DNA from: Rhodocytophaga aerolata
GTDB lineage: Bacteria; Bacteroidota; Bacteroidia; Cytophagales; 172606-1
Reading direction: 5' to 3'
DNA length: 64,000 nucleotides
NCBI RefSeq assembly: GCF_030503435.1
Contig: NZ_JAUKPO010000001.1
Location: forward strand, 1,004,766 to 1,068,765
A program made the translations under genes and the position numbers. This document shows positions 43,527-58,428 of the stretch, piece by piece; the stretch's first letter is position 1, and every line of letters starts with the position of its first letter. The notes beneath the pieces are model-generated. The model saw only the letters and a program-made list of their open reading frames with translations. It did not search any database and had not been told where the DNA came from.

Positions 43527-44312
43527 TTATAGGAAGCTTTTTTCTGGCACAGCTACTTCTCTGCTTTGCCGGAAACGGTAGAGATAAGGGGCTTTGTGCG
43601 CACCACCAGTCCATTTTTTTTCCAGTCGTTCCAGAATATCCAGGCTTAGTATTTTGCGCTGAAAACTAGTCCGGTTCAGCTTTTCGCCCAATATGGTTTC
43701 ATACAAACTCTGTAAATCGCCCATAGTGAATGTTTCCGGCAACAAATTAAACCCGATCAGTTTCCGGTCCAGGTTAGCCCGGAGTGTTTCCAGGGCTTTT
43801 TCTATCATGGCCTGGTGGTCCAGCATGAGGGGGGGTAAATTGGCTAGGTCGTACCAGTCACAGCGTTCGGAGAGCAGGTCGGGACTGGGTACGGCTTTTG
43901 TAAAATCAACGAGTGCATAAAAGCCTACCGAAACAAATCTTTTGAGTAACCAGTGATCATCTCCCGGATTCATCCCTTTGCTCTTCAGAATCTTCCGGAG
44001 GGGCTCCGGGTCAAAACGGGAATAATCGCCAAATACATAATACTGCTCCAGGTAAATATTGTGCAGGCCGGTCCGGTGAGTCAACGCCCGTTTAGCTGCC
44101 TCATTTAAATTTTCTTTCTCCTTAATAAAGCCGGCCGGTAACCCAAGCAGATTCGTATTCTGGTATTCCAGCAATAATACCTTCAACTGCTTTTCATGAA
44201 AACCAAAAATAACCATATCAATGGCCAGGCCAGGTAGATAACCTGACCCATCGGGGTGATCCACCTGCAATTGATTATCGGGAGTGGTTTGTTTACGCAT
44301 CCTTTCCAACAT
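43527..44312 (-). CDS. Nudix-winged-helix regulator (NrtR/AraR-like), left copy
   Basis: The ATG at 44312 gives 261 residues; the frame extends four codons to a GTG. The N-terminal Nudix fold (about 25-160) holds MVIFGFHEKQLKVLLLEYQN and a Nudix box at 61-83. There the canonical REUxEExGU reads RALTHRTGL, so all three metal-binding Glu residues are lost and hydrolysis is unlikely. The C-terminal winged helix (about 185-255: LLPETFTMGDLQSLYETILG, KLNRTSFQRKILSLDILERL) binds DNA in this family. Bacteroidota members such as AraR sense sugars through the dead Nudix pocket. It is divergent from the first carboxylesterase of the ester island, and a paralogue stands at the island's other end. Confidence 0.9.
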   Translation of the reverse strand: MLERMRKQTTPDNQLQVDHPDGSGYLPGLAIDMVIFGFHEKQLKVLLLEYQNTNLLGLPAGFIKEKENLNEAAKRALTHRTGLHNIYLEQYYVFGDYSRFDPEPLRKILKSKGMNPGDDHWLLKRFVSVGFYALVDFTKAVPSPDLLSERCDWYDLANLPPLMLDHQAMIEKALETLRANLDRKLIGFNLLPETFTMGDLQSLYETILGEKLNRTSFQRKILSLDILERLEKKWTGGAHKAPYLYRFRQSREVAVPEKSFL

Positions 44313-44345
44313 TTGTAGCTGCACTTAGGGGTATATGAAATACTA

Positions 44346-44416
44346 TTGTCGCAAAATGCAACATTAAATTTGCTTATTCAAGAATTAATCGATATTATTG
44401 TTCCACTGTGCGACAA
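44346..44416. promoter_or_regulatory. Split inverted repeat in the regulator/esterase promoter region
   Basis: TTGTCGCA (44346-44353) and TGCGACAA (44409-44416) form a perfect 8-bp inverted repeat 55 bp apart between the divergent Nudix regulator and carboxylesterase. The spacing suggests two half-operators or a looping site. Confidence 0.4.
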
Positions 44417-44496
44417 TGACATTTTATTTTACTAAAATATAGTTGATTTATTAAATAATATACAAAGACTAGTATCCTAAACCTATTAATTACTTT

Positions 44497-46134
44497 ATGA
44501 AAACGCTTATTTTTCTGCTTTTTATGGCTACCTTACTTTCATCTACAGCAGAAGCTCAATCTAAAAACAATGCTGCCACAGGGATGAAGCAAGTAAAAAC
44601 AGCGAATGGAATGCTGGAAGGAACTGCTGAAAAAAGTGGCGTAGTTTCTTTTAAAGGCGTGCCTTTTGCCCAGCCTCCGGTAGGTGACTTACGCTGGAAA
44701 GAGCCGCAGCCAGCCAAGAATTGGCAAGGAGTACGCAAAGCCGATAAGTTTGGTCCCAGAGCCATGCAACGGGCTATCTTTGGTGATATGGGTTTCCGCT
44801 CTAATGGCATGAGTGAAGATTGCCTGTACCTGAATGTATGGACACCTGCCAGGTCGGCCAATGAGAAATTGCCAGTATTGGTCTATTTTTATGGCGGCGG
44901 ATTTGTAGCCGGCGATGGGTCTGAAAGCCGGTACGACGGGGAAAGCATGGCACAGAAAGGCATTGTAGCCCTTACCGTAAACTACCGCCTGGGCTTATTC
45001 GGATTTTTGGCCCACCCGGAACTCACCAAAGAATCAGGTAAGAATGCTTCTGGTAATTATGGGTTACTCGATCAGGCGGCTGCCTTAAAATGGGTGCAAC
45101 AGAACATTGCCGCCTTCGGTGGTGATCCGAAGAAAGTAACTATTGCCGGGGAATCTGCCGGTTCCATGAGTGTAAGCGCCCAGATGGCCTCTCCGCTGTC
45201 TAAAAATCTGATTGCCGGGGCCATTGGCGAAAGTGGTTCTATGATCTCTTTACAGCCTATGCCTTCCCTAAAGCAAGGCGAAGAAATGGGTGTAAACTTT
45301 GCTAAAGCGGTAGAAGCCAAGTCACTCGCCGATTTACGGGCAATGCCTGCCGAACAACTGCTGGAAGCTACAGCTAAGCCTGGTATTCCCTGGTTCTGGC
45401 CCATTGTAGATGGCTATTTCTTCCTGAAATCTCCTGCCGAAATTTTTGCAGCTGGCGAACAAGCAAAAGTACCCTTACTGGCCGGTTGGAACTCAGAGGA
45501 AATGGGAGCCCAGTCTATTTTAGGAAAAGAAGCACCCACGAAAGAGAATTATACCGCAGCAGTACAAGAATTATATGGTGATAAAGCGCAGGAAGTGTTA
45601 AAACTATACCCTGCCTCCACTGAAGAAGAAGTTATGCAAGCCGCTACGGATCTGGCTGGCGACCGGTTTATTGGTTACAGCACCTGGAAATGGGTAGATG
45701 TACACAGCAAAAACAGCAACAAACCAACATACCGCTATTATTATACCCGTCCCCGTCCGGCCATGACAGCCGAAATGGGTGATGCAGCTCCTGGACTGGC
45801 TGGCGGGGTAGTAAAAGGGTCTGATGCCAATGCTATTAAAATGCCTCCTGCCCGGGGTGCTGTACACTCAGCGGAAATTGAATATGCCATGGGAAATTTG
45901 CCCTACAACAAAGTATACGCCTGGACTCCAGAAGACTATAAAGTATCGGAAACCATGCAAGCCTACTTTGCTAACTTCATCAAAACTGGTAATCCGAATG
46001 GTTCTGGCCTGCCGCAATGGCCTGCTATTAAAGGAAATGAGGTACAGGTAATGCAGATTGATGTAACCAGCCAGGCTAAACCTGACCAGACCCGCGCCCG
46101 CTACCAGTTCCTCGAACAAACAGCCGGAAAATAG
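44497..46134 (+). CDS. Secreted type-B carboxylesterase 1
   Basis: The 545-residue protein has a signal peptide (KTLIFLLFMATLLSSTAEAQ). It is a full-length type-B carboxylesterase: FKGVPFAQPPVGDLRWKEPQ opens the fold and SEDCLYLNVWTP carries the family disulfide-side motif. The oxyanion loop is YFYGGGFVAGD. The nucleophile is Ser220 in IAGESAGSMSV, an acidic residue lies near WNSEEMG (about 334), and the catalytic His is about 457 in GAVHSAEIEYAMG. All triad members are present. Its closest relative in the window is the 51704 copy. It is divergent from the left Nudix regulator, a probable controller. Substrate is unknown: aryl or alkyl esters. Confidence 0.93.
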   Translation: MKTLIFLLFMATLLSSTAEAQSKNNAATGMKQVKTANGMLEGTAEKSGVVSFKGVPFAQPPVGDLRWKEPQPAKNWQGVRKADKFGPRAMQRAIFGDMGFRSNGMSEDCLYLNVWTPARSANEKLPVLVYFYGGGFVAGDGSESRYDGESMAQKGIVALTVNYRLGLFGFLAHPELTKESGKNASGNYGLLDQAAALKWVQQNIAAFGGDPKKVTIAGESAGSMSVSAQMASPLSKNLIAGAIGESGSMISLQPMPSLKQGEEMGVNFAKAVEAKSLADLRAMPAEQLLEATAKPGIPWFWPIVDGYFFLKSPAEIFAAGEQAKVPLLAGWNSEEMGAQSILGKEAPTKENYTAAVQELYGDKAQEVLKLYPASTEEEVMQAATDLAGDRFIGYSTWKWVDVHSKNSNKPTYRYYYTRPRPAMTAEMGDAAPGLAGGVVKGSDANAIKMPPARGAVHSAEIEYAMGNLPYNKVYAWTPEDYKVSETMQAYFANFIKTGNPNGSGLPQWPAIKGNEVQVMQIDVTSQAKPDQTRARYQFLEQTAGK

Positions 46135-46327
46135 GGAGCCATTGAATAATGAGTATTGACTAAGGAATACCTATTATTGAACGAGGAAGTCAGTAGAAGT
46201 AGGTTATACATCCTAGTAAAATCTGGCAGTTCGATGTTAAGAGAAATGATACGTTGGCACTATAAGAGTTACTTCTGTTGAACTAGTTAGCTCTACTTTG
46301 TCACTTTTGATAAAACAAATTATTCCA

Positions 46328-46531
46328 TGAGCGCAGGCTTGAAAAAACAGCGGGCTTTGTGTTGGGCGTGAGCGGGGAAGCATTGTTTTTTCTAGATGTT
46401 GATTTGCATGGCACAGGCTGGCTCAAAGCATGCGCTTTGCCCCTTTCTTTGCAGCAATGGCACATCGAAGATTCATTAACTCCTTTAAAAATAAAACACA
46501 TTGTTAATAAAGAAAGTAAGAGAAGCTATCA
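46328..46531 (+). repeat. Dispersed repeat family, copy 2 (diverged)
   Basis: The left part (GAAAAAACAGCGGGCTTTGT ... AGCGGGGAAGCATTGTTTTT) matches the common core. The right part (46451-46531: CAATGGCACATCGAAGATTC onward) matches only copy 4 at 53601. A stretch of about 55 bp between them has no counterpart and replaces the usual hairpin. Confidence 0.65.
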
Positions 46532-46680
46532 ATAAGGGCTAAGTTTAATCTTTTAGGCCTAATTTAAATGAAGAGACAATATAGAGTTAGGTCCATAGTC
46601 CGCTTTACATGCTCATGCACTACTCTTTTAAAAAAAATACAATTAGCTCTATAAACTGGTAAACACTTTTTTAACTGTGT

Positions 46681-46711
46681 AAACCTGCCCGGCTAGCTAC
46701 CTGGCAGGTTT
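46681..46711 (+). terminator. Hairpin in the leader of esterase 46748
   Basis: A perfect 9-bp stem (AAACCTGCC / GGCAGGTTT) with a 13-nt loop ends 36 bp before the start codon. It may be a leftover terminator or an attenuator. Confidence 0.4.
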
Positions 46712-46747
46712 ACCTTCATTCAATTCATTAATCCTATTAATTTCCCT

Positions 46748-47623
46748 ATGAAGTTCTTCTATACTGTTTTTCTAGTTACCTTGTTAAGCTCCACCATTTC
46801 TTCCTTTGCTGCCAGAGTAGATACCTTGAATATTCCCAGCACCGCCATGAAAAAGAATTACCGGGCGGCCATAGTACTGCCAGATTCCTATGCAAAAAGT
46901 AAAGGTACCTACCCTGTATTATACCTGTTGCATGGTGGAGGCGGACAGTTCAGCGACTGGCTTAAACAAACCCCGGACAAACAACTGCTACACAAACTGG
47001 CAGATCAATATAACCTCATTATTGTAACGCCAGAAGGAGAAAAACTGGGAGGCTATTTAGATAGCCCCTTTCAAAAAGATAACCTGTTTGAGACCTATAT
47101 TACGAAAGAGGTAATTACCAAAATTGATGATACCTACCGCACCATCCGCAGCCGCAATGGACGGGTAATTACCGGATTGAGTATGGGCGGGCATGGGGCT
47201 TTGTATCTGGCCACCCGCAACCCGGACCTTTTCTGCGCCGCTGGCAGCATGAGTGGCGCCCTGGATTTAAATCCGGCCAACTGGCGGATAGACCCAGAAT
47301 TCGCTGAACGAATCAAGCCAGGATTTGAGCGCATTTTAGGACCACAAGGTGGCAAGCCCGATCAGTATGCCGCTCACTCTGTAGTAAACATGGCCGATCA
47401 GATAAAAGCCAACGATGTGAAGCTGATTATTGATTGTGGGGTAGATGATTTTCTGATTGAGCCAAACCGGGAACTGCATCGTCGGCTGGTGTATAATAAA
47501 GTAACGCACGACTATACGGAACGTCCGGGTGGCCATACTTGGGATTACTGGGAAAACTCCCTGCCCTACCATGTGTTGTTTTTCAACAAAATCTTGAAAT
47601 CAAACAGCGTAGTTATTCCTTAA
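46748..47623 (+). CDS. Secreted CE1/esterase-D-like hydrolase A
   Basis: The 291-residue protein has a signal peptide (KFFYTVFLVTLLSSTISSFA). The core is of the esterase-D/feruloyl-esterase type: PVLYLLHGGGGQFSDWLKQT forms the oxyanion region and ITGLSMGGHGALYLATRNPD has the nucleophile Ser. The acid is in IIDCGVDDFLIEPNRELH and the final His in PGGHTWDYWENSLPY. It is a close paralogue of the gene at 48803, and the two sandwich a CE1-like enzyme 15 bp and 27 bp apart, clearly one operon. Relatives release acyl or feruloyl groups from sugars, or S-formyl groups from glutathione; export argues for the first. Confidence 0.9.
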   Translation: MKFFYTVFLVTLLSSTISSFAARVDTLNIPSTAMKKNYRAAIVLPDSYAKSKGTYPVLYLLHGGGGQFSDWLKQTPDKQLLHKLADQYNLIIVTPEGEKLGGYLDSPFQKDNLFETYITKEVITKIDDTYRTIRSRNGRVITGLSMGGHGALYLATRNPDLFCAAGSMSGALDLNPANWRIDPEFAERIKPGFERILGPQGGKPDQYAAHSVVNMADQIKANDVKLIIDCGVDDFLIEPNRELHRRLVYNKVTHDYTERPGGHTWDYWENSLPYHVLFFNKILKSNSVVIP

Positions 47624-47638
47624 TGTATAATAGAAATA

Positions 47639-48775
47639 ATGCTGAACAGATATCTCTTTGCTCTTTTAGCCACCTTGCTGTCCGGAAGTATAGCACAGGC
47701 ACAGCAATTTCCCGGACGTACACCTACACCAAATGACACCCTGGTTTCTCCGAGAATACTGCCGGATAACCGGCTAACTATCAGCATCTATGCACCCAAA
47801 GCCAGTGAAGTTACGCTTATGGGCGATCTGCTACCCACATATACACCAGTAAAACTGGTAAAGGATGAAAAAGGTGTATGGACGCATACCTTAGGCCCGC
47901 TAGCTCCTAATGTATATACCTACGACCTTAATGTGGATGGTGTAAAAACCTTTGACCCGAAAAATGCGAAGTTCAAAGAAAGTCAGAATGGCATATCCAA
48001 TATTGTGGAAGTGCCCGGCAAGGAAACAGCTTATCTGGCAGTTAAAAACGTACCGCATGGCAGGGTAGAATCGGTGTGGTATTACTCTTCTTCTTTAAGC
48101 GATACCCGCCGGATGCATATTTATACCCCTCCAGGGTATGACCAACTGAAAGAAGCTTTGCCAGTGCTGTATCTCTTACATGGCGGAGGGGATAACGATG
48201 CTTCCTGGACTACGGTAGGCAGGGCTAATTTTATTCTGGATAATTTACTGGCAGAAGGCAAAATGAAACCCATGATAGTAGTTATGCCTGCCGGACATGT
48301 GCCTGGCAAAGGACCTGCGATGGGTGCCGGACCAGATCAAGACCCTTTTGCCAAAGATTTTCTGTCTGATATTATTCCCTATGTAGAAAAGAACTACCGG
48401 GTATCTGCCAAGCGGGAGCACCGGGCACTGGCTGGTTTATCGATGGGTGGTATCCAAACAATGAATATTGCCTTGTTCAACCCAGATAAATTCAGTTATG
48501 TACTGCCTTTAAGTACTGGTTACTTTCCCCCGGTTTTAGAAGAACTGGAGAAAAAATACACCAGTGTGCTGAAAAATCCGAAAATAAATCAGTGGAAACT
48601 GTTCTGGATTGCTATGGGTGGCGAGAAGGACATAGCTTACCAGAACAACAAGAATACGATGGCCCTTTTCGATAAATATGGCATCAAATACAAATATATT
48701 GAGGTGCCTGGTGGTCATACATTCCTGGCCTGGCGGGACAACTTGTATACATTTGCTCCTTTGTTATTCCGGTAA
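47639..48775 (+). CDS. Secreted CE1-like esterase with N-terminal E-set domain
   Basis: The 378-residue protein has a signal peptide (RYLFALLATLLSGSIAQAQ). An immunoglobulin-like, CBM48-type domain follows (about 40-120: LTISIYAPKASEVTLMGDLL, VYTYDLNVDGVKTFDPKNAK). Then comes a CE1 esterase with LPVLYLLHGGGDNDASWTTV, nucleophile Ser in LAGLSMGGIQTMNIALFNPD, acid in GGEKD and His in VPGGHTFLAWRDNL. Two-domain enzymes of this shape are acetyl- or feruloyl-xylan esterases. It lies between paralogous esterases A and B, with gaps of 15 and 27 bp, consistent with one transcript. The substrate class is likely; the exact ester is not known. Confidence 0.92.
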   Translation: MLNRYLFALLATLLSGSIAQAQQFPGRTPTPNDTLVSPRILPDNRLTISIYAPKASEVTLMGDLLPTYTPVKLVKDEKGVWTHTLGPLAPNVYTYDLNVDGVKTFDPKNAKFKESQNGISNIVEVPGKETAYLAVKNVPHGRVESVWYYSSSLSDTRRMHIYTPPGYDQLKEALPVLYLLHGGGDNDASWTTVGRANFILDNLLAEGKMKPMIVVMPAGHVPGKGPAMGAGPDQDPFAKDFLSDIIPYVEKNYRVSAKREHRALAGLSMGGIQTMNIALFNPDKFSYVLPLSTGYFPPVLEELEKKYTSVLKNPKINQWKLFWIAMGGEKDIAYQNNKNTMALFDKYGIKYKYIEVPGGHTFLAWRDNLYTFAPLLFR

Positions 48776-48802
48776 GCCTTTTTAACTATTTTACATTCTG
48801 CT

Positions 48803-49684
48803 ATGAACCTGTTCCCTAAACTTATTTTTTTCGCCTTTCTTAGCCTGACTACAAACCTTTGTTCGCTTGCTGCCAAAGTAGATACCCTGGATATAGCCAG
48901 TACCGCTATGCAGAAAAACATCCGGGCAGCGGTAATTATACCAGATAGCTATAAGAAAGCAAAAAAGCCTTTTCCGGTATTATATCTGCTGCATGGGGGC
49001 ACCGGCAGTTACCGCGACTGGCTTAGCAAAACTCCCGACAAACAATTACTACACCGGCTGGCAGATCAATACAACATCCTGATTGTAACGCCAGATGGCG
49101 GGCCTACCAGTTATTATTTTGATAGTCCACTGGATAAAACGAGCCAGTACGAAACCTTTATTTCCAAAGAACTGATAGAGAAAATAGAGGCTACTTATAA
49201 GACCATTAAAGAGCGTAACGGACGGGTAATTGCCGGCTTATCCATGGGTGGCCACGGGGCGATGTATATCTCTACCCGCCATCCGGAACTGTACTGTGCT
49301 GCCGGAAGCATGAGTGGCGTCATGAACATTAACACGGCCACCTGGAAAGTACCGGCCGATTTTGCAAAGTTACGTGCTGAAAACTTTGCCAAATTATTAG
49401 GGCCTCCACAAGATGCCACTAACCCTTATCCGGAATACACCGCCGTTGGCCGGGTAAACGAATTTAAAACGAGTGGCTTGAAGCTAATTTTTGATTGTGG
49501 CGTAGACGACTTTCTGATTGATACGAACCGGGACCTGCATCAAAAACTAGTAGCCAGCCAGGTACCGCATGATTACATTGAACGGCCGGGAGCGCATACC
49601 TGGGAATACTGGGAAAATGCCCTCCCCTACCAGGTCCTGTTCTTTCACAAAATACTAAAGGCAAATGGAGTAGCTATTCAATAG
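48803..49684 (+). CDS. Secreted CE1/esterase-D-like hydrolase B
   Basis: The 293-residue protein is a tandem-duplicate-like paralogue of the 46748 enzyme. It has a signal peptide (PKLIFFAFLSLTTNLCSLA). Shared blocks include FPVLYLLHGGTGSYRDWLSK, VIAGLSMGGHGAMYISTRHP (nucleophile Ser), FDCGVDDFLIDTNRDLHQKL and PGAHTWEYWENALPYQVLFF (His). Differences concentrate around the 85-100 loop and the insertion near 190, as expected if the two differ in ester preference. It ends the three-gene operon; the next 57 bp lead to repeat copy 3. Confidence 0.9.
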   Translation: MNLFPKLIFFAFLSLTTNLCSLAAKVDTLDIASTAMQKNIRAAVIIPDSYKKAKKPFPVLYLLHGGTGSYRDWLSKTPDKQLLHRLADQYNILIVTPDGGPTSYYFDSPLDKTSQYETFISKELIEKIEATYKTIKERNGRVIAGLSMGGHGAMYISTRHPELYCAAGSMSGVMNINTATWKVPADFAKLRAENFAKLLGPPQDATNPYPEYTAVGRVNEFKTSGLKLIFDCGVDDFLIDTNRDLHQKLVASQVPHDYIERPGAHTWEYWENALPYQVLFFHKILKANGVAIQ

Positions 49685-49740
49685 CCTGAGTAATTCTCAC
49701 ATGTGCTTTTCACTAAACTGTCAAATTAAAAAAATCCTTG

Positions 49741-49847
49741 AGCGTGGACCCGAAAAAATAGCGGGGTAAGCGTGGGCACTGTGCGTGGAAGCATTATTTT
49801 TTCTAGACCTTTTTTGTTACTTTTTTGTGGCAATGACAAAAAAGTAA
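49741..49847 (+). repeat. Dispersed repeat family, copy 3
   Basis: Collinear with the reverse complement of copy 1 along about 107 bp: GAAAAAATAGCGGGGTAAGC, then GGAAGCATTATTTTTTCTAG, then the hairpin GTTACTTTTTTGT / ACAAAAAAGTAA around GGCAATG. It lies in the 292-bp gap between esterases. Confidence 0.75.
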
Positions 49848-49976
49848 AAGACAGTATCGATAAGAACAGAATTTAAATATTTGAATATCCATCAATTAAA
49901 TAGGAAAAAATTGCTTAACAGAACTAATACTATTCAAAGAGCCTAAATAACACTAAACCTTAACCCAAACCCATTT

Positions 49977-51623
49977 ATGACTCATAAACTGTCCCTTTTA
50001 TCTCTACTCCTGCTACTCCTGCCTGCACTGGTATGGAGCCAAAGCAAAACCCCATCTGCGGCTTCCACAACTCCTATTATGGCTGGTAAGGATATAGCCG
50101 TTGTCCAAACAAACTATGGTAAGGTACGCGGCTACATTCACAATGGTACGCATACCTTTAAAGGCATTCCTTATGGCAAAGCAGAGCGGTTTATGGCACC
50201 CTCCAAACCAGACACCTGGGAAGGCATCCGCAGTTCAATGACCTATGGCCCGGTCTCCCCAACAGACCCTACCACCACTGTATATGATGAAATAGAGTTT
50301 CCTTTTCAGCACAACTGGGGTTATACCAATGAAAATTGCCTGACCCTGAATGTATGGACACAAAAGGTGAATGATGGCAAAAAACGCCCCGTAATGGTAT
50401 GGTTCCATGGTGGTGGATTTACAGGAGGCTCCTCTGTGGAATTACCTTCCTATGATGGAGAAAATCTGGCAAAAAGAGGAGATGTAGTAATGGTTACAGT
50501 AAACCACCGCCTGAACATACTGGGTTTTCTGGATCTATCTGCTTATGGAGATAAATACAAATCGTCTGCCAATGCCGGTTTGATGGATCTGGTAGCCTCC
50601 CTGGAATGGGTAAAAGCAAATATTGCTAATTTTGGCGGAGACCCTGCGAATGTAACCATTTTCGGTCAGTCTGGGGGCGGCGGCAAAGTAACGTCGCTGA
50701 TGAATGCTCCATCTGCCAAAGGATTATTCCATAAAGCCATTGTGCAAAGCGGCAGTTATATTACTAACTTTACCGAAGCTTCTTTAGCCAAACAAGTAAG
50801 TGCCGCCTTGCTGGAAGAGTTGAAATTACAACCTTCTCAAATTGATTCCCTGCAAAACATATCTTATGAACGCCTAGCGGCTGCCGGCAAAAAAGCCATG
50901 CGGAAAGTGCAGGATGATTTAAAAGCACAAGGCAAACCAGTAGGAGGCTTTGGATTAAGCTGGGGACCTGTTCTGGATGGAAGTTTTCTGCCTTATCAGC
51001 CTACGGAACCTGCAGCAATAGAGCTTTCTAAAAACATACCGCTGCTGGTAGGTTCTACTAAAACAGAATTTGGTCCATTCAATCCGGCTGTACGGAATTT
51101 AGCTACCATGGATGCAGCCAAAACAGACCTGCAAAAAAGATATGGCAACAATACCGATGCGTATGTAGCAGCTGTAAAAAAGGCCTATCCGGAAACCACT
51201 GCTCCTACCGACTACGCCAATATTGATATCAACTTCCGGTCCCTAGCTATCAAGCAAGCCAATGAAAAGTCTGCTGTACCAGGGGCGGCGCCAGTGTATA
51301 TGTATTTGTTCACCTGGGCATCCCCGGTAATGGATGGTATGTACAAATCGATACACTGCATGGAACTTCCGTTTGTGTTTGACAACATTGCCCGTTGCGA
51401 AGAAATGACAGGAGGCGGAAAAGAAGCACATGCCCTGGCTGCCAACATGAGTATAGCCTGGATCAACTTTGCCAAAACCGGCGATCCGAATCATAAAGGC
51501 TTACCCGCATGGCCAAAGTATACGGCTCAGAATGGTGCCAACATGATATTCGATACCCAGTGCCAGGTGAAAAGTCACCACGATCAGGAGTTGCTGCAGG
51601 TAGCTTCCGGAAACAAATTATAG
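49977..51623 (+). CDS. Secreted type-B carboxylesterase 2
   Basis: The 548-residue protein starts with a signal peptide (KLSLLSLLLLLLPALVWSQ). It is a type-B carboxylesterase of a different subgroup from its two neighbours. The nucleophile elbow is IFGQSGGGGKV rather than GxSAGS, with GENCLTLNVW and VWFHGGGFTGGSS for the oxyanion side. An acid lies in TKTEFGPF and the His in MYKSIHCMELPFVFDNIARC. The central ATVYDEIEFPFQHNWGYTNE and the GGG elbow are typical of the pnbA-like lineage in Bacteroidota. It is followed after 80 bp by the next carboxylesterase, so they may be co-transcribed. Confidence 0.92.
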   Translation: MTHKLSLLSLLLLLLPALVWSQSKTPSAASTTPIMAGKDIAVVQTNYGKVRGYIHNGTHTFKGIPYGKAERFMAPSKPDTWEGIRSSMTYGPVSPTDPTTTVYDEIEFPFQHNWGYTNENCLTLNVWTQKVNDGKKRPVMVWFHGGGFTGGSSVELPSYDGENLAKRGDVVMVTVNHRLNILGFLDLSAYGDKYKSSANAGLMDLVASLEWVKANIANFGGDPANVTIFGQSGGGGKVTSLMNAPSAKGLFHKAIVQSGSYITNFTEASLAKQVSAALLEELKLQPSQIDSLQNISYERLAAAGKKAMRKVQDDLKAQGKPVGGFGLSWGPVLDGSFLPYQPTEPAAIELSKNIPLLVGSTKTEFGPFNPAVRNLATMDAAKTDLQKRYGNNTDAYVAAVKKAYPETTAPTDYANIDINFRSLAIKQANEKSAVPGAAPVYMYLFTWASPVMDGMYKSIHCMELPFVFDNIARCEEMTGGGKEAHALAANMSIAWINFAKTGDPNHKGLPAWPKYTAQNGANMIFDTQCQVKSHHDQELLQVASGNKL

Positions 51624-51703
51624 CATATTAACCAGTAAAAGAACTCATCAGTAGGCAACTAGAGGTGAGTTCATTTTACATTTTCTACCCAACTTACACT
51701 TCT

Positions 51704-53260
51704 ATGCAATTCTCTCTCCGGTTGTTCTTTATGGCTTTTGTAGCGGTGATGGGCTTTGTATCCTTTACGCCTACAACGGCCGATCTTGCAACGGTTAAAA
51801 CAGACGCCGGCCTGGTTTCCGGCACCAAAAATACAGATGGTACTATACAGATTTTCAGAGGTATCCCTTTTGCAGCCCCGCCAGTAGGAGATCTCCGCTG
51901 GAAAGCCCCACAACCAGTAAAACCCTGGACGGGTGTAAAAAAATGTGAGGCATTCAGCGCAAGCCCGATGCAAGCCAGTCCGGCTCCCTTCAGTATGTGG
52001 TCCGAAGAATTTCTTATTCCCAAAGAACCTATCAGCGAAGATTGTTTGTACCTGAACGTGTGGACTGGGGCCAAAACAGCAATAGAAAAACGGCCGGTGT
52101 TGGTATGGATTTATGGAGGTGGCTTTAATAGTGGCGGCAGTGCCGTACCAATTTACGACGGAGAAGCCTTGGCAAAAAAAGGAATTGTGTTTGTCAGCAT
52201 TAACTACCGGGTAGGGGTATTTGGTTTTCTGGCGCATCCGGAACTTACGAAAGAATCTGGGAAGAATGCTTCCGGAAATTATGGATTGATGGACCAGATT
52301 GCGGCTTTACAATGGGTACAGAAAAACATTGCCGCTTTCGGGGGAGATCCAAAGAATGTAACCATCGCCGGACAATCGGCCGGCTCCATGAGTGTAAATG
52401 CCCTGGTTGCCTCCCCATTAACCGCAGCTCTGTTTCAGAAAGCCATTGCCCAAAGTGGAGCTAATTTTTCCAGAGGTACAGTAAGCCTGCAACAAGCGGA
52501 GGAAAACGGAGTAAAATTCGCACAATCGGTCAATGCTTCTTCCATTAAAGAACTTCGCAGTATAACGGCCCAGGAACTGATGCAGAAATCCCAGGGTATG
52601 CGTGGAGTTATCGTGGATGGTTATGTGCTGCCAGATGCCATTGCTAACATCTTTGCCACAAACAAACAGAATAATGTAGCCCTATTGACCGGGTGGAATG
52701 AGAATGAGGGCTTGGTATTCGGACCCATCAAAAATGCAGATGAGTTCCGGAAAGAAGCAGAAACACAATACGGCACAGAAACCAGTACATTCCTGAAGCA
52801 TTACCCGGCCACCACTGATTCCGTAGCGGCTGTTTCTCAACTGAACCTGTCCAGAGATATGATTTTTGGCGTGCAGAATTATACCTGGGCCAATGTACAA
52901 AGCAAGCAGGGAAAATTGCCAGTATATGTGTACCGCTTTACCCGAAAAGTGCCGGCTACCGGAGAATATGTAAAATTCGGTGCCTTTCATACTGGAGAAG
53001 TACCGTATGCGTATGACAACCTAAAATTCGTAAACCGGCCCTGGCAACCCGTAGACCGTGAACTGGCTAACAGTATGTCTTCGTACTGGGTAAACTTTAT
53101 TAAGTCTGGCAATCCCAATGGTAAAGGTCTGCCTCAGTGGCCTGCCTATACCACCAAAGACAAACAGATCATGATACTAGGTGATAAACCGGGAGCCACT
53201 ACATTACCAGACGAGGCAGCCCTGGATTTTATTTCAGAGAAAATGAATAGGCAGCAATAG
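51704..53260 (+). CDS. Secreted type-B carboxylesterase 3
   Basis: The ATG at 51704 gives 518 residues with a proper signal peptide (FSLRLFFMAFVAVMGFVSF). A GTG 39 bp upstream would spoil it. The sequence is nearly repeated from esterase 1 in the core: AHPELTKESGKNASGNYGL and AAFGGDPKNVTIAGQSAGSM (nucleophile Ser in GQSAG where esterase 1 has GESAG). The acid is in GWNENEGLVFGP and the His in KFGAFHTGEVPYAYDNLKF. The triad is complete. It follows esterase 2 by 80 bp. Esterases 1 and 3 look like products of duplication separated by the inserted operon. Confidence 0.92.
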   Translation: MQFSLRLFFMAFVAVMGFVSFTPTTADLATVKTDAGLVSGTKNTDGTIQIFRGIPFAAPPVGDLRWKAPQPVKPWTGVKKCEAFSASPMQASPAPFSMWSEEFLIPKEPISEDCLYLNVWTGAKTAIEKRPVLVWIYGGGFNSGGSAVPIYDGEALAKKGIVFVSINYRVGVFGFLAHPELTKESGKNASGNYGLMDQIAALQWVQKNIAAFGGDPKNVTIAGQSAGSMSVNALVASPLTAALFQKAIAQSGANFSRGTVSLQQAEENGVKFAQSVNASSIKELRSITAQELMQKSQGMRGVIVDGYVLPDAIANIFATNKQNNVALLTGWNENEGLVFGPIKNADEFRKEAETQYGTETSTFLKHYPATTDSVAAVSQLNLSRDMIFGVQNYTWANVQSKQGKLPVYVYRFTRKVPATGEYVKFGAFHTGEVPYAYDNLKFVNRPWQPVDRELANSMSSYWVNFIKSGNPNGKGLPQWPAYTTKDKQIMILGDKPGATTLPDEAALDFISEKMNRQQ

Positions 53261-53348
53261 TCAGTGGTCATTGGTAAGTAGTCAGCAAAATCTATATGAT
53301 TAATCTTTATGCAACTATTGAGTAGTAAATTTTAGTAATCTTTGCCCT

Positions 53349-53447
53349 CGTGGCCGGGCAGGCCACGCCTTTGCAACACCGCTGTATAGAATCCGCACAA
53401 ACCTACTCCCAGTGCCAAAGATTCTATAAGGCGTCTTTTGCAAAGGC
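53349..53447. repeat. Structured element: hairpin plus nested stem
   Basis: CGTGGCC-GGGCA-GGCCACG (53349-53367) is followed at once by a long stem. Its outer arms are GCCTTTGCAA (53367-53376) and TTGCAAAGGC (53438-53447); its inner arms are TATAGAATC (53385-53393) and GATTCTATA (53420-53428). All arms pair perfectly. It could be a structured RNA, a recombination site or a MITE-like remnant. Confidence 0.6.
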
Positions 53448-53512
53448 TGTTGTCGGTTTATTAGCATTAATTTTTGATGAATGCTAGATTTCAATAAAAC
53501 ATAAAGTCTTTA

Positions 53513-53680
53513 TGTGTTGGCCTGGAAAAACTGCAGGCCATGTGTAGGCCAAGAGCGGGGAAGCGTTGTTTTTCCTAGACCTTTTTTGTTACTTTTTTGT
53601 GGCAATGACACATGCGAAGCATTCATGAACACCTTTGAAAATTATTTGATTGTGAATAAAAAAGTAAGAAGACACGGTCA
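53513..53680 (+). repeat. Dispersed repeat family, copy 4
   Basis: The core GAAGCGTTGTTTTTCCTAGA and CTTTTTTGTTACTTTTTTGT with GGCAATGACA matches copies 1 and 3. Instead of closing the hairpin it continues (53601-53680) into the tail shared only with copy 2. Confidence 0.7.
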
Positions 53681-53730
53681 AAACTATCTAGTTTAGTCAA
53701 CATTTTCTTCAAAAAACTCTTTACAACCCC

Positions 53731-55338
53731 ATGACCCTAACCCGTAGAGATTTCCTCAAACAGCTAAGTGCAGGAACAGCCGTAGTGGGCCTAACTGCAT
53801 GGCTCCCCTCCGCTTATGCCAGTGACCTAAAAAGAACCAGTGGCCTGGCCCGCAGCATTCCAGAACTACAAGGATTATCCTCCAAACATATCCTGGCTTT
53901 TATAGAGGCAGTGGAGAAAGCTAATCTGGGTTTGCATAGCCTGATGATTGTACGGCATGGCAAAGTGATAGCCGAAGGATGGTGGGACCCCTATAAAGCC
54001 GATTTGAAACACACCCTTTTCTCTCTAAGCAAAAGTTTTACCTCTACGGCCATTGGCTTTGCCGTAGCCGAAGGGCGGTTAACCGTAGAAGACAAAGTAA
54101 TCTCCTTTTTTCCGGAGGAGAAACCAGCCGCGGTAAGTCAGAACCTGGCAGCCATGCGCATCAAAGACCTGCTCACGATGACGACAGGGCATGAGAAAGA
54201 TACCATAGGGCCGCTGCTGGGAGAAACAGAATGCTGCTGGGTAAAACGTTTCTTGTCCCTGCCGGTAGAACGGGAACCGGGCACCCACTTCCTGTACAAT
54301 ACTGGAGCTACCTATATGCTGTCGGCCATTTTGAATAAAGTCACGCAAACGAGCTTACTAAACTACCTGACACCCCAGCTATTTAAACCGCTTGACATAA
54401 AAGGTGCCGATTGGGAAACAGATCCGGATGGCATAGATACCGGCGGTTTTGGGCTACGGCTTACTACAGAAGATATTGCCAAGTTTGGCCAGTTATATCT
54501 CCAAAAAGGAAGCTGGAATGGTAAACAACTCTTACCTGCCAAATGGATCGAAGAAGCGACTTCGTTCCAGGTACCCAATGCGCCCCTTACCGGCAAAACC
54601 ACCGAGCACGAGTGGAACCAGGGCTATGGCTACCAGTTCTGGCGGTGCCGGCACAATGCCTACCGGGGAGATGGAGCGATGGGCCAATATTGCCTGGTGA
54701 TGCCAGACCAGGATGCAGTGATTGCTATCACCAGCGAAACGCACGACATGCAAGCCATCATGACACAAGTATGGGAAATTTTGCTGCCTAACATGACTAA
54801 AGGACCACTGTCCCAGGATGCGAAAAGCCATACAATGCTGAAACAGAAACTAGCTACCCTTACCTTGCTTCCACCAGTAGCTGCGCCTGCTTCTTCCCTT
54901 GCGTCTACCTTGTCAGGCAAAACGTATAAGCTAAAAGAAAATACACTTAACCTGGAAAAAGCCTCTTTCACTTTCCGCAAGAACAGCTGCACCTTTACAG
55001 TAAAAGATACCAAAGGCGAACATACCATTGTTTGTGGCTTCAACCACTGGGAAAAAGGCGAAACCCAGATGCCCGGTGATCCGCCCAAGTTTGTACCCTT
55101 GAAAAATACAATGGATACCGCTAAAGTAAAAGTGGCCGCTGTAGGCACCTGGAAAGACCCGGATACATTCGTGATGACCTGGAATTTCTATGAAACGCCT
55201 CATTCTGATATAGTCACTTGCCACTTTGAAAAAGACACCGTACGGATGGAATTTATGAATAGTGTAGATACCAAAGCCAGAAACAGCAAAGAACCCAGAT
55301 TGATTCTGGAAGGGAAACTGGAAGAAATGAAAGGCTGA
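53731..55338 (+). CDS. Tat-exported serine hydrolase (beta-lactamase/esterase VIII fold)
   Basis: The 535-residue protein starts with a Tat signal (TRRDFLKQLSAGTAVVGLTA). Residues about 40-370 form a class-C beta-lactamase-like domain. The SxxK motif is Ser98-Lys101 in LFSLSKSFTST. A YxN motif lies in HFLYNTGATYML and the third motif is near the GYGYQFWRCRHNAYRGDGAM region. Residues about 390-535 form a beta-rich C-terminal domain with repeated TFRKNSCTFTVKDTKGE-like strands. Family VIII esterases of this fold cleave esters or amides; beta-lactam resistance is not implied. Its place after six esterases favours an esterase role. Confidence 0.88.
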   Translation: MTLTRRDFLKQLSAGTAVVGLTAWLPSAYASDLKRTSGLARSIPELQGLSSKHILAFIEAVEKANLGLHSLMIVRHGKVIAEGWWDPYKADLKHTLFSLSKSFTSTAIGFAVAEGRLTVEDKVISFFPEEKPAAVSQNLAAMRIKDLLTMTTGHEKDTIGPLLGETECCWVKRFLSLPVEREPGTHFLYNTGATYMLSAILNKVTQTSLLNYLTPQLFKPLDIKGADWETDPDGIDTGGFGLRLTTEDIAKFGQLYLQKGSWNGKQLLPAKWIEEATSFQVPNAPLTGKTTEHEWNQGYGYQFWRCRHNAYRGDGAMGQYCLVMPDQDAVIAITSETHDMQAIMTQVWEILLPNMTKGPLSQDAKSHTMLKQKLATLTLLPPVAAPASSLASTLSGKTYKLKENTLNLEKASFTFRKNSCTFTVKDTKGEHTIVCGFNHWEKGETQMPGDPPKFVPLKNTMDTAKVKVAAVGTWKDPDTFVMTWNFYETPHSDIVTCHFEKDTVRMEFMNSVDTKARNSKEPRLILEGKLEEMKG

Positions 55339-55492
55339 TAAAGTCAGTCATTCCTGACATTTGCTGACCTTTTTGCAAGATTAAACTCGCCTTTATGAGA
55401 GTTTAAGCAAATCAACAAAAGCAGTTTGTAGAAACAATGCTACAATGATGAGCAAAGTATAATTTTCAAATTTTCACATCTACAATTTACGT

Positions 55493-56788
55493 ATGCTGGC
55501 TTTTTTAGGGCTTCTAACGATTATACTTCTGTTGATTCTGGTCATGGGGAAAATGGTGTCACCAGTAGTGGCCCTCATTGTGGTACCTATTGTTACAGCC
55601 CTGATGGGAGGGTTTACTGCGGAGATACTTACTTTCATTACAGAGGGCATTAAAACTATTTCTACCACAGCCGTCATGTTCATCTTTGCTATTCTCTTCT
55701 TTGGTATACTGATGGATGCCGGCACCTTTGATCCCATTATTTCCCATTTGCTAAAAGCCGCTGGCAACGATCCACCCAGGATAACCGTAGTTACGGCCAT
55801 ACTCGCCATGATTGTACACCTGGATGGCTCCGGAGCTGTTACTTTTCTGGTAACTATTCCTGCTTTACTTCCCCTTTATGATGCGCTGAACATGCGAAGA
55901 ACCACCCTGGCTACTATTGTAGCACTATCGGCAGGCACCATGAATATATTGCCTTGGGGAGGCCCCACCATCCGGGCAGCTACTGCTTTAGAGGTGCAGG
56001 TTACGCAACTGTTCAATCCTTTACTTGTTCCAGCGCTGTGCGGGTTGCTTACGGTTTTAGGAATTGCTTACGTTTTGGGTATGAAAGAAAGACAATATGT
56101 ACGAATTCCAGAAGTAACGTCTATAGAAACGCAAACTCAGGCGGCTGCAAAAACAAATAGCCTAGCCAGGCCAAAGTTATTGTGGTTTAATATACTTTTA
56201 ATCATTATATCAATTATAGTCCTAATCTCTGCCTGGGCACCGCCGCATATTATCTTTATGATAGCTTTTGCGATTGCCATTAGTATAAATTACCCCAATC
56301 TGAAAGACCAACGGGAACGGATAGATGCCCACGCCAAAGCGGCGCTGCTAATGGCAAGTATTTTATTTGCTGCTGGTTGTTTTACCGGAATTTTGAAAGG
56401 CTCAGGCATGATAGAAGCCATGGCTTCCTCTGCCGTAAAGGTGATCCCTGCTTTTGTGGGCAATCACTTAGCGTTGGTTACCGGCCTGCTCTCCATGCCC
56501 GCTAGCTTACTGTTCGACCCGGATTCGTTTTACTTTGGGGTACTTCCTCTCTTAGGCACTACGGCTACGCATTTTGGAGGAGAAAGTATAGAAATAGGCC
56601 GGGCAGCTATCCTGGGCCAGATGACTACTGGTTTTCCTATAAGCCCCTTGACTGGTGCTACGTTCTTATTAATTGGCTTAACAGGGGTAGACTTAGGCGA
56701 ACATCAGCGGAAAACCATTCCTCTGGCTTTTCTGGTGACCATGGTAATGTTACTGTTTTCTCTCCTGTTAGGTGTTATTAGCTTATAA
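55493..56788 (+). CDS. CitMHS-family transporter
   Basis: The 431-residue protein has about 12 membrane helices and belongs to the CitMHS/ion-transporter superfamily, whose founding members import citrate as divalent-metal complexes. Typical stretches are MFIFAILFFGILMDAGTFDP, AMIVHLDGSGAVTFLVTIPA and GTMNILPWGGPTIRAATALE. The end has LLGTTATHFGGESIEIGRAA and GFPISPLTGATFLLIGLTG. The AtuA-like gene starts 9 bp after its stop, so the three genes form an operon. An organic acid with several carboxylates or a hydroxy acid is the likely cargo. Family assignment is solid; substrate is inferred. Confidence 0.9.
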   Translation: MLAFLGLLTIILLLILVMGKMVSPVVALIVVPIVTALMGGFTAEILTFITEGIKTISTTAVMFIFAILFFGILMDAGTFDPIISHLLKAAGNDPPRITVVTAILAMIVHLDGSGAVTFLVTIPALLPLYDALNMRRTTLATIVALSAGTMNILPWGGPTIRAATALEVQVTQLFNPLLVPALCGLLTVLGIAYVLGMKERQYVRIPEVTSIETQTQAAAKTNSLARPKLLWFNILLIIISIIVLISAWAPPHIIFMIAFAIAISINYPNLKDQRERIDAHAKAALLMASILFAAGCFTGILKGSGMIEAMASSAVKVIPAFVGNHLALVTGLLSMPASLLFDPDSFYFGVLPLLGTTATHFGGESIEIGRAAILGQMTTGFPISPLTGATFLLIGLTGVDLGEHQRKTIPLAFLVTMVMLLFSLLLGVISL

Positions 56789-56797
56789 ATACATTAG

Positions 56798-58120
56798 ATG
56801 AAAAATAAAATCAGAATTGGTTGTGGGGCCGGGTTCTCCGGAGATAGACTGGAAACAGCAGTGATTCTGGCAGAAAAAGGCGAACTGGACTACCTAGTAC
56901 TGGAATGCCTGGCAGAACGGACCATTGCCTTAGCCCAGAAACGGAAAATGCAGGATGCCAGCAAAGGCTATGATCCCTTGCTGGAACGCCGGATAGAATT
57001 GTTGCTGCCTATCTTAACACAGAAGAAAGTAAGGTTAATTACCAATATGGGAGCCGCCAACCCGATAGCAGCCGCCCAGGTTATTTGCCAGATTGCTACC
57101 CGGTTGAATATTTCAGTCATGGTAGCTGCTCTTACCGGAGACGATGTATTGTCACAGCTTACAGGCGAAGAAATGGCTTTGGAAACCGATAAACCTCTTA
57201 ATGCCTCCGGGCAGCCCATTTCAGCCAATGCCTATCTGGGCATTGAAGCCTTACTACCCGCTTTAGCTACCAGTGCAGATATCATTATCACAGGCCGGGT
57301 GGCAGATCCATCCCTGTTTGTAGCTCCACTGGTACATGAGTTTGGTTGGTCTACAGATGATTATGAGAAGCTCGGGCAAGGAACTGTAATCGGCCATCTG
57401 CTGGAATGTGCCGGACAACTAACCGGGGGTTATTTTGCAGATCCGGGTAAGAAAGACGTACCTGATTTTGCCCATTTAGGCCATCCCTTTGCCGATGTAT
57501 CACCGGATGGAACAGCCCTATTTTCTAAAGTAGAAGGAACTGGCGGGATATTGAGTCTGGCTACGGCCAAAGAACAATTGCTGTATGAAGTGATGGACCC
57601 CAGCCAGTACATTACCCCGGATGTAGTAGCTGATTTTACGGGTGTGTATTTACAGGAAGTGGAGAAAAACAAAATCAGAGCCTGGGGTGGACGAGGAACC
57701 GCAAAGCCTGCCACGCTAAAAGTGAGTGTAGGCTATGCAGCAGGGTTTGTAGGCGAAGGAGAAATATCCTATGCAGGGTCTAATGCCTTAGGCCGGGCAC
57801 AGCTCGCCGGACAGGTAATTAAACAACGGCTGGCATCTTCTTTTTCTGACTTGCGCATTGATTACATCGGCAGTACATCTGTTCACCGTAAAACATTCGG
57901 GCAGCACCCGGAACCGTATGAAGTTCGCTTGCGTGTGGCAGGAAAAGCGAAAACTGCTGCCCAGGCGGCAACTATTGGGGAGGAAGTAGAAGCGTTATAT
58001 ACCAATGGCCCTGCCGGAGGAGGAGGAGCCAGAAAATATGTACATGAGGTAGTAGGCATAGTGTCTACTTTGATACCCCGAAATAAAGTAAATTCTACCG
58101 TTACGCTGGTAAAATCATGA
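56798..58120 (+). CDS. AtuA-family (DUF1446) protein
   Basis: The 440-residue protein begins with the family's opening IRIGCGAGFSGDRLETAVIL and has LDYLVLECLAERTIALAQKR, MGAANPIAAAQVICQIATRL, IIITGRVADPSLFVAPLVHE and GGGGARKYVHEVVG. AtuA is needed for growth on citronellol and other acyclic terpenes in Pseudomonas, but its reaction is not established, and most DUF1446 proteins sit in organic-acid or acyl-CoA contexts. Here it stops after the AtuA domain. The C-terminal part usually attached is encoded by the next gene, whose ATG overlaps this stop by 4 bp. This split with overlap suggests a two-subunit protein. Confidence 0.9.
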   Translation: MKNKIRIGCGAGFSGDRLETAVILAEKGELDYLVLECLAERTIALAQKRKMQDASKGYDPLLERRIELLLPILTQKKVRLITNMGAANPIAAAQVICQIATRLNISVMVAALTGDDVLSQLTGEEMALETDKPLNASGQPISANAYLGIEALLPALATSADIIITGRVADPSLFVAPLVHEFGWSTDDYEKLGQGTVIGHLLECAGQLTGGYFADPGKKDVPDFAHLGHPFADVSPDGTALFSKVEGTGGILSLATAKEQLLYEVMDPSQYITPDVVADFTGVYLQEVEKNKIRAWGGRGTAKPATLKVSVGYAAGFVGEGEISYAGSNALGRAQLAGQVIKQRLASSFSDLRIDYIGSTSVHRKTFGQHPEPYEVRLRVAGKAKTAAQAATIGEEVEALYTNGPAGGGGARKYVHEVVGIVSTLIPRNKVNSTVTLVKS

Positions 58121-58428
58121 AAACCAAACTTTACGACATAGCTCACAGCCGGGCAGGCGATAAAGGCAATACCCTCACCCTATCTCTAATTCCTTACCTT
58201 GCAGAAGATTACCATCTGTTATGTGAACAAGTAACGGCTGAGGCAGTAAAGAAACAGTTACAAGGGATAGTAGCTGGAGAAGTTACCCGGTACGAATTAC
58301 CCAATCTGCCTGCCTTGAATTTTGTCTGCAAACAAGCCCTAATGGGTGGCGTTACTATCTCATTAACTATGGATACCCATGGAAAAAGCCTGAGTTATGC
58401 TTTGCTGGAGATGGAAATTGAGAAATAA
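58117..58428 (+). CDS. Detached AtuA C-terminal-like (ferredoxin-fold) protein
   Basis: The 103-residue protein overlaps the AtuA stop codon by 4 bp (ATGA). It shows the pattern of the domain found at the end of long AtuA proteins: YDIAHSRAGDKGNTLTLSLI, LCEQVTAEAVKKQLQGIVAG, EVTRYELPNLPALNFVCKQA and LMGGVTISLTMDTHGKSLSY. In long AtuA relatives this module is fused; here translation is coupled instead. It probably binds the AtuA partner as an obligate subunit. No catalytic motif is obvious. It completes the CitM-AtuA operon. Confidence 0.85.
   Translation: MKTKLYDIAHSRAGDKGNTLTLSLIPYLAEDYHLLCEQVTAEAVKKQLQGIVAGEVTRYELPNLPALNFVCKQALMGGVTISLTMDTHGKSLSYALLEMEIEK

What the first reader, a model, noticed from the sequence alone, without database searches (positions are those of the whole stretch)
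44497..55338. Seven exported ester hydrolases of three folds in one direction
Three type-B carboxylesterases, three CE1-like enzymes and one SxxK (family VIII-like) hydrolase follow one another, all with signal peptides and intact catalytic residues. Two pairs are clear paralogues (44497/51704 and 46748/48803). Nested duplication around a CE1-like core suggests selection for cleaving a multi-ester polymer or a family of related esters, such as acylated plant glycans, lignin-carbohydrate esters or polyesters. No polymer backbone enzyme lies inside the island.
Basis: partly seen in the sequence, partly recalled or inferred. Interest (0 to 1): 0.55.

Follow-up and report, generated by a model that had tools for sequence, protein, structure and literature searches.

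The report
Conserved ester-eating gene cassette, NUDIX-regulated
A bacterium carries a row of exported ester-cutting enzymes that turns out to be one end of a conserved gene set, whose other end probably imports and breaks down a small citrate-like acid that the enzymes set free.

Summary
In detail: seven intact hydrolases of three folds lie in one direction at 44497-55338. The boundary and the duplication story need correction. The island runs on into a CitMHS citrate:H+ symporter (55493), AtuA (56798) and an AtuA ferredoxin-like subunit (58117), and a divergent NUDIX/NrtR regulator (43527) precedes it.

The congener keeps this order without the CBM48-CE1 gene. AtuA alone was searched in 390 genomes of the order: at 54 of 54 loci read, CitM and the small subunit accompany it; 40 of 54 also carry type-B or CE1 hydrolases (4 on weak CE1 matches only), against 0 of 20 control stretches. 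Trees show old lineages, not local duplicates.

AtuA's predicted fold has one significant solved match, citramalate lyase. E1 and E3 match fumonisin esterase best; E2 does not. An 8-3-8 palindrome recurs beside the regulators: 15 sites in 11.1 kb against 1 in 755 kb.

Best reading: a regulated pathway that cuts esters outside, imports a citrate-like acid and cleaves it. No activity is shown and the substrate is unknown. The parts are known; my paper searches did not find the combination.

The parts
43527..44324 (-). NUDIX/NrtR-family regulator (NrtR_WHD), probable repressor of the cassette
   Evidence: PF21906 80.9 bits, AraR_C, NUDIX; nearest solved structure BtAraR 5bs6, E 7e-35; ortholog at the same place in G001 and G004 (78 and 74%) and in G005, G006 (76%)
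44346..44364 (.). predicted operator 1, 8-3-8 semi-palindrome TTGTCGCA-AAA-TGCAACAT
   Evidence: the strict pattern with up to 1 mismatch gives the two island sites and one other place in the genome, the backward control pattern one; footprint in relatives
44398..44416 (.). predicted operator 2, TTGTTCCA-CTG-TGCGACAA
44497..46134 (+). E1, exported type-B carboxylesterase; nearest solved structure fumonisin B1 esterase 8s6d
   Evidence: PF00135 404 bits; 8s6d 264 bits, next best 235
46748..47623 (+). F1, exported CE1-like esterase
   Evidence: PF00756 129 bits; F1/F3 profile's best solved hits 5vol, 7xrt
47639..48775 (+). F2, exported CBM48-CE1 esterase (feruloyl-esterase-like); absent from the congener's island
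   Evidence: 179 bits to a xylanase/feruloyl esterase model, below its cut-off of 1200; no F2 in the G001 island
48803..49684 (+). F3, exported CE1-like esterase
   Evidence: PF00756 120 bits; S147, D235, D236, H265 invariant in 12 aligned sequences
49977..51623 (+). E2, exported type-B carboxylesterase, separate lineage
   Evidence: PF00135 332 bits; nearest solved 5a2g; tree
51704..53260 (+). E3, exported type-B carboxylesterase; nearest solved structure fumonisin B1 esterase 8s6d
   Evidence: PF00135 382 bits; 8s6d 286 bits, next 269
53731..55338 (+). S, SxxK serine hydrolase or acyltransferase (beta-lactamase fold) with a Tat-type start; found only in this genus among the loci examined
   Evidence: PF00144 120 bits; 3-succinylated cholic acid synthase model 334 bits, below its cut-off of 800; present in G001, 0 of 78 and 0 of 54 relatives' loci
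55493..56788 (+). CitM, CitMHS citrate:proton symporter family
   Evidence: TIGR00784 424 bits, cut-off 259.7; PF03600
56798..58120 (+). AtuA-family protein, citramalate-lyase-like large subunit
   Evidence: PF07287 493 bits; AlphaFold2 model pLDDT 85, Foldseek 9evf E 3e-26, TM 0.70; profile hit 9erq E 2.6e-6
58117..58428 (+). AtuA ferredoxin-like small subunit, overlaps AtuA by 4 bases
   Evidence: PF23544 123 bits; beside AtuA in 54 of 54 loci

Best explanation
The seven hydrolases are the exported half of a conserved, NUDIX-regulated catabolic cassette of Bacteroidota. Type-B carboxylesterases and CE1 enzymes (plus lineage-specific extras F2 and S) cut esters outside the inner membrane. One released product is a small di- or tricarboxylic hydroxy acid of the citrate/citramalate type. 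CitM imports it with protons, and AtuA with its ferredoxin-like partner cleaves it as citramalate lyase does, giving acetate or acetyl-CoA and an oxo acid for central metabolism. The divergent NrtR-type protein represses E1 through two 8-3-8 palindromes and lets go when it binds a pathway ligand, probably not L-arabinose. Shown here: gene identities, linkage across relatives, operator footprint, fold match of AtuA. Judged by eye: export signals. Inferred: repression, the acid, the reaction, the ester substrate.
For: G001 has reg-E1-F1-F3-E2-E3-S-CitM-AtuA-small at 75-90% identity per protein. AtuA-only search of 390 genomes of the order: 56 match at E<=1e-140, own included, in 21 of 129 genera. 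Of the 55 others, 54 loci were scanned together over up to 20 kb: CitM 54, small subunit 54, type-B or CE1 enzyme 40 (type-B 31, CE1 25, both 16), NrtR regulator 15; control stretches from 20 of these genomes 0 of 20 for each. The 55th is G001, positive. More distant AtuA homologues (33-41% identity, 143 of 395 phylum genomes) are another clade: of the 24 such loci looked at, in at most 4.4 kb, none showed CitM or these hydrolases, against CitM 5 of 5 and hydrolase 3 of 5 for the close clade; read over 16-20 kb all 5 close ones had hydrolases. AtuA model's only PDB match below E 0.001 is citramalate lyase with ADP and pyruvate. Best solved relative of E1 and of E3 is fumonisin esterase; FumD frees tricarballylic acid (PMC4810229, passages). 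Operator pattern with up to 1 mismatch: 15 sites in 11.1 kb around 37 NrtR gene starts against 1 in 755 kb of the rest of the loci; 10 of 14 regulators divergent from a type-B esterase have one.
Against: 14 of 54 CitM-AtuA loci have none of these hydrolases in the stretch read (one of them, L226, has an Abhydrolase_10 there), and 4 of the 40 positives (L247, L251, L252, L257) rest on CE1 matches of 29-32% identity alone. Conversely only 11 of 35 named loci with an F3-type gene show AtuA (contig ends and 10-kb flanks limit this), and G004 has reg-E1-F-E3 with no CitM-AtuA on its 10.3-kb contig nor an AtuA match at E<=1e-140 anywhere. So each half also occurs alone. In G002, G003, G005 and G006 the F relative stands alone. 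AtuA resembles citramalate lyase weakly in sequence (15% identity in the fold match; single-sequence E 0.0072). FumD being nearest may only reflect which enzymes have been crystallised; for E2 it is not among the 12 matches at E<=1e-50. Loci share descent; the named scan kept the best 80 of 301, and some named and unnamed loci are the same contigs. The pattern counted was written after seeing the window and some relatives; 4 of 14 esterase-divergent loci (L080, L125, L131, L134) show no site at that stringency, and 20 of the 23 other regulators show none.
Confidence: 0.6

Rival explanations
1. Debranching set for acylated plant cell-wall glycans: CE1 and type-B enzymes remove feruloyl, acetyl and similar groups from arabinoxylan or pectin; the CitM-AtuA genes are a neighbouring unit without a shared substrate.
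For: F2 resembles the CBM48-CE1 half of a xylanase/feruloyl esterase; the F1/F3 profile matches solved ferulic acid esterases; the regulator is related to AraR; GH106, GH78 and GH3 enzymes stand beside some relatives' esterases; a GH5-family protein lies at 34130-35254 in the window.
Against: No SusC/SusD pair or glycanase among the island proteins; the GH5 protein has no match in any of the 78 named loci; F2 is missing from the congener's island; CitM-AtuA linkage is far above control; Arg34, one of three residues that hydrogen-bond arabinose in BtAraR, is Tyr here.
Confidence: 0.22
2. A scavenging set of unrelated broad esterases gathered at a regulated promoter, with no single substrate.
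For: Three folds and variable content: F2 and S are lineage-specific; Abhydrolase_10 or BD-FAE enzymes stand among them in relatives.
Against: The same orthologous lineages recur in several families, with an operator footprint.
Confidence: 0.12
3. Polyester or mycotoxin-type degradation: the type-B enzymes act on man-made or fungal esters, fumonisin-like.
For: Best solved relative of E1 and E3 is fumonisin B1 esterase.
Against: Among the 20 window proteins scanned with Pfam I saw none of the other fumonisin-pathway enzymes (these are recalled); the spread of the cassette over 21 genera suggests a common natural ester.
Confidence: 0.06

Closest known systems
BtAraR (BT0354) of Bacteroides, NrtR-family sugar regulator
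   Same: NUDIX ligand domain plus NrtR winged helix; two semi-palindromic sites before the target operon; ligand residues Arg86 and His131 kept in 14 of 14 aligned regulators
   Different: Arg34 position is Tyr (Tyr or Trp in 13 of 14); DNA-contact residues Lys179, Arg180, Asn181, Lys184 read Arg, Thr, Ser, Arg, and Lys204, Arg205 read His, Lys, by my mapping on the HMMER alignment; targets are esterases and a lyase-like pair, no arabinose genes
Citramalate lyase subunit A, CmlA (PDB 9erq, 9evf)
   Same: AtuA family, whole-chain fold match
   Different: 15% identity; substrate not tested
Fumonisin esterase FumD (PDB 8s6d)
   Same: type-B carboxylesterase, nearest solved relative of E1 and E3; frees a tricarboxylate
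   Different: belongs to a mycotoxin pathway; here three type-B lineages stand beside CE1 enzymes, a citrate symporter and an AtuA protein
CE1 feruloyl esterases with CBM48
   Same: F2 architecture; F1 and F3 family and motifs
   Different: F1 and F3 have no CBM match; no xylanase in the island
Polysaccharide utilisation locus (PUL)
   Same: clustered exported enzymes with a regulator, in Bacteroidota
   Different: no SusC/SusD; a carboxylate symporter and a lyase-like pair in their place

Membership tests
Type-B carboxylesterase (PF00135) | family profile over cut-off, GxSxG serine with acid and His motifs | tested here: met
   404, 332, 382 bits; motifs (E1's His by eye)
CE1-like esterase (PF00756) | family profile over cut-off, GLSMGG serine, conserved Asp and His | tested here: met
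Family VIII esterase / SxxK hydrolase | PF00144 with SxxK and a Tyr motif; esterase activity | tested here: inconclusive
   fold family, SLSK and YNT met; activity not testable; an acyltransferase-like model also matches
3-succinylated cholic acid synthase (NF045925) | score over 800 bits | tested here: not met
   334 bits
AraR of the NrtR family | arabinose-holding residues Arg34, Arg86, His131 | tested here: not met
   Arg34 position is Tyr; Arg86 and His131 kept
NrtR-family regulator (wider) | NUDIX domain plus NrtR_WHD; semi-palindromic sites nearby | tested here: met
   binding itself not tested
Citrate:proton symporter CitMHS (TIGR00784) | score over 259.7 bits | tested here: met
   424 bits; the acid carried was not tested
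Citramalate lyase (CmlA type) | AtuA fold of the large subunit | tested here: met
Citramalate lyase (CmlA type) | cleavage of citramalate | not testable with these tools
   needs an enzyme assay; active-site residues were not compared
Polysaccharide utilisation locus | SusC/SusD pair in the locus | tested here: not met
   no such pair in 43527-58428; the TonB-type protein at 38993 is matched in 3 of 78 and 1 of 54 relatives' loci
Fumonisin esterase FumD | release of tricarballylate from fumonisin B1 | not testable with these tools
   sequence similarity only

The most novel reading that the evidence does not exclude
A dedicated pathway for eating polycarboxylate esters (for instance 3-hydroxy-3-methylglutarate, citrate or citramalate esters of plant glycosides): several exported esterases, a citrate-type symporter and an AtuA-type lyase under a NUDIX repressor, giving the AtuA family a role as an acid lyase at the end of ester breakdown.
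Probability: 0.35. Interest if true: 0.7.

Novelty: new variant of a known kind. Interest (0 to 1): 0.5.

Why it matters
It joins exported ester hydrolases of unknown target to a transporter and a lyase-like enzyme, so the substrate could be deduced from the acid that is imported. It gives the little-studied AtuA family a testable role, suggests a new ligand for a NUDIX-type regulator with a mapped operator, and names several esterase lineages worth assaying on polycarboxylate esters.

Tried and rejected
Recent local duplication as the origin: rejected by trees in which E1, E2 and E3 fall in separate groups that each hold the congener and other families, and F1 falls in a 100/99 clade apart from F3; the F3-type rows are not one supported clade (window F3 joins G001, G004 and a Pontibacter at 91/90). 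The program warned of long branches between the E2 and E1 groups, and the F bootstrap had not settled.

AraR membership and an arabinose effector: rejected, because Arg34 and the DNA-contact residues differ. Rfam match in the window at gathering score: none. NCBIfam name for AtuA: none. With 3 mismatches the strict operator pattern is not special in the window as a whole: 9 matches, 3.9 expected, reached by 4 of 100 shuffles, and it is not found at L034's regulator. The palindrome lists had no chance control; several loci (for instance L225, L127) show none.

Literature: no paper held at least three of 'citrate transporter', AtuA, carboxylesterase, Spirosoma; none held 8S6D, 9EVF or 9ERQ. One search was wasted on a Portuguese word that begins 'atua', on 3-hydroxy-3-methylglutaryl esters, gave only general papers in the listing. 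DUF1446 beside methylaspartate genes was seen in passages of PMC4682846. The small subunit had only chance-like PDB hits. Neighbours in 10 or 11 of 55 loci that look like methylmalonyl-CoA mutase subunits and DnaA (my reading of the letters, no profile run) were set aside as a shared chromosomal place. That 5a2g acts on polyesters is recalled and not used.
Full report
What was checked. All seven hydrolase ORFs are present as described, on one strand, without internal stops, and each falls in the stated fold family. E1, E2, E3 are type-B carboxylesterases, F1 and F3 plain CE1-like enzymes, F2 a CBM48 plus CE1 enzyme, S an SxxK enzyme with a Tat-type start. Catalytic motifs are intact. The genome has 11 PF00135 matches, five nearly full-length, three of those here; and 11 PF00756 matches, three here and five within about 6 kb on contig C125.

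Borders. Gaps from E1 to the small ORF at 58117 are 613, 15, 27, 292, 80, 470, 154, 9 and -4 bases, so the run does not end at 55338: CitM, AtuA and an AtuA ferredoxin-like subunit follow. E1 stands divergent to an NrtR-type NUDIX regulator with 172 bases between.

Relatives. The only other genome held of the genus, G001, has reg-E1-F1-F3-E2-E3-S-CitM-AtuA-small at 75-90% identity; F2 is absent and F3 is split over two frames. G004 of the same family has reg-E1-F-E3. In G002, G003, G005 and G006 the best F1 relative stands with no other island gene in the 20 kb read, but G005 and G006 have reg-E1-Abhydrolase_10-CitM-AtuA-small elsewhere. A named scan with the F1/F3 alignment found 301 relatives and kept the best 80, 78 distinct loci; one is G004's contig. 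Of these 78, 33 hold a type-B relative, 21 at least two CE1 enzymes, 20 a regulator of this kind and 9 the CitM-AtuA-small trio; of 35 loci with an F3-type gene 27 have a type-B enzyme and 11 AtuA; of the 43 without, 6 and 0.

Test without esterase bias. AtuA alone was searched in 390 genomes of the order: 56 matched at E<=1e-140, own included, from 21 of 129 genera. For 54 of the other 55 I read 12 to 20 kb: CitM 54 of 54, small subunit 54 of 54, type-B or CE1 hydrolase 40 of 54 (4 of the 40 on CE1 matches of 29-32% identity alone), NrtR-type regulator 15 of 54, S 0 of 54; of unrelated window neighbours the TonB-type protein 1, DoxX 0, sulphotransferase 0. Twenty stretches of 20 kb elsewhere in 20 of the 55 genomes had none of these. 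The remaining genome, G001, is positive. Of the 14 negatives, one (L226) has an Abhydrolase_10 directly before CitM; that family is in 7 of the 55 loci clustered (Pfam name from the L091 member).

Evolution. Trees put E1, E2 and E3 in separate groups that each hold the congener and other families, and F1 in a supported clade apart from F3. E1's nearest paralogue is on another contig, 74%. This is assembly and retention of old lineages, not nested local duplication.

Regulation. Two 8-3-8 palindromes lie at 44346 and 44398. With up to one mismatch the strict pattern occurs in the genome at these two sites and one more; the backward control pattern occurs once. A looser pattern, written after looking at the window and several relatives, gives 15 sites in 11.1 kb around 37 NrtR gene starts and 1 in 755 kb of the rest; 10 of 14 esterase-divergent regulators have a site, 3 of 23 others. 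Other loci show the same geometry with other letters, for instance TTACGTAC-TTT-TGACGTAA in five loci (no chance control). The AraR paper (PMC4666351; section 11 and passages read) describes tandem semi-palindromic sites for BtAraR. Residues that hold arabinose or touch DNA there are partly replaced here, so another ligand is likely.

Function. CitM scores over the citrate:proton symporter cut-off. AtuA's AlphaFold2 model (mean pLDDT 85) has one PDB match below E 0.001: citramalate lyase with ADP and pyruvate, E 3e-26, TM 0.70, 15% identity; a profile search finds the same protein at E 2.6e-6. E1 and E3 have fumonisin B1 esterase as best solved relative, an enzyme that removes tricarballylic acid (PMC4810229, passages); E2's nearest is another carboxylesterase and fumonisin esterase is not among its 12 matches at E<=1e-50. 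Together this suggests that one product of ester cleavage is a citrate-like acid. A GH106 cluster in 5, GH3 in 4 and GH78 in 1 of 45 locus records suggest glycoside esters as one source. That plants make 3-hydroxy-3-methylglutaryl esters of such glycosides is recalled.

Limits. No activity is shown. Loci share descent, and some named and unnamed loci are the same contigs by length (L087 and L080, L107 and L223, L127 and L225, L091 and L214). Each half also occurs without the other. Signal peptides were judged by eye. The acid is a guess among several.

Noticed in passing
46320-46427, 49731-49838, 53503-53610: Three same-direction copies (60-77% alike) of a ~108-base interspersed repeat fill three intergenic gaps and bracket the F1-F2-F3 and E2-E3 blocks; 21 matches, some partial, in the genome, one in the congener's E3-S gap in the other direction (nine G001 stretches searched), none in the 78 named loci.
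   Followed up: partly
62894-63661 (+): A second NrtR-type regulator in the window; in 18 of the 20 named loci with such a regulator it is the better match than 43527. It stands next to a ThuA/GSDH/cytochrome c protein. Five NrtR_WHD genes in the genome.
   Followed up: partly
L038 11045-17471 (G000:C125), L039, L195 4100-9650: Tandem array of five CE1-type (F2-like) domains, two of them in one 651-aa frame, repeated in the congener and, in L195, standing right beside a CitM-AtuA cassette.
   Followed up: no
L034 11983-16462: In the congener the closest F2 relative (65%) follows a GH3-like gene (judged by eye) divergent from another NrtR regulator with its own palindrome ATGCGTAA-TTT-TTACGCAT.
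   Followed up: partly
L102: A contig labelled Flavobacterium sp. SUN052 carries the cassette and groups with Spirosoma-type families in both trees: gene transfer or a wrong label.
   Followed up: no
L078 12399-13273: The F3 gene of the congener is split over two frames, by decay or sequencing error.
   Followed up: no
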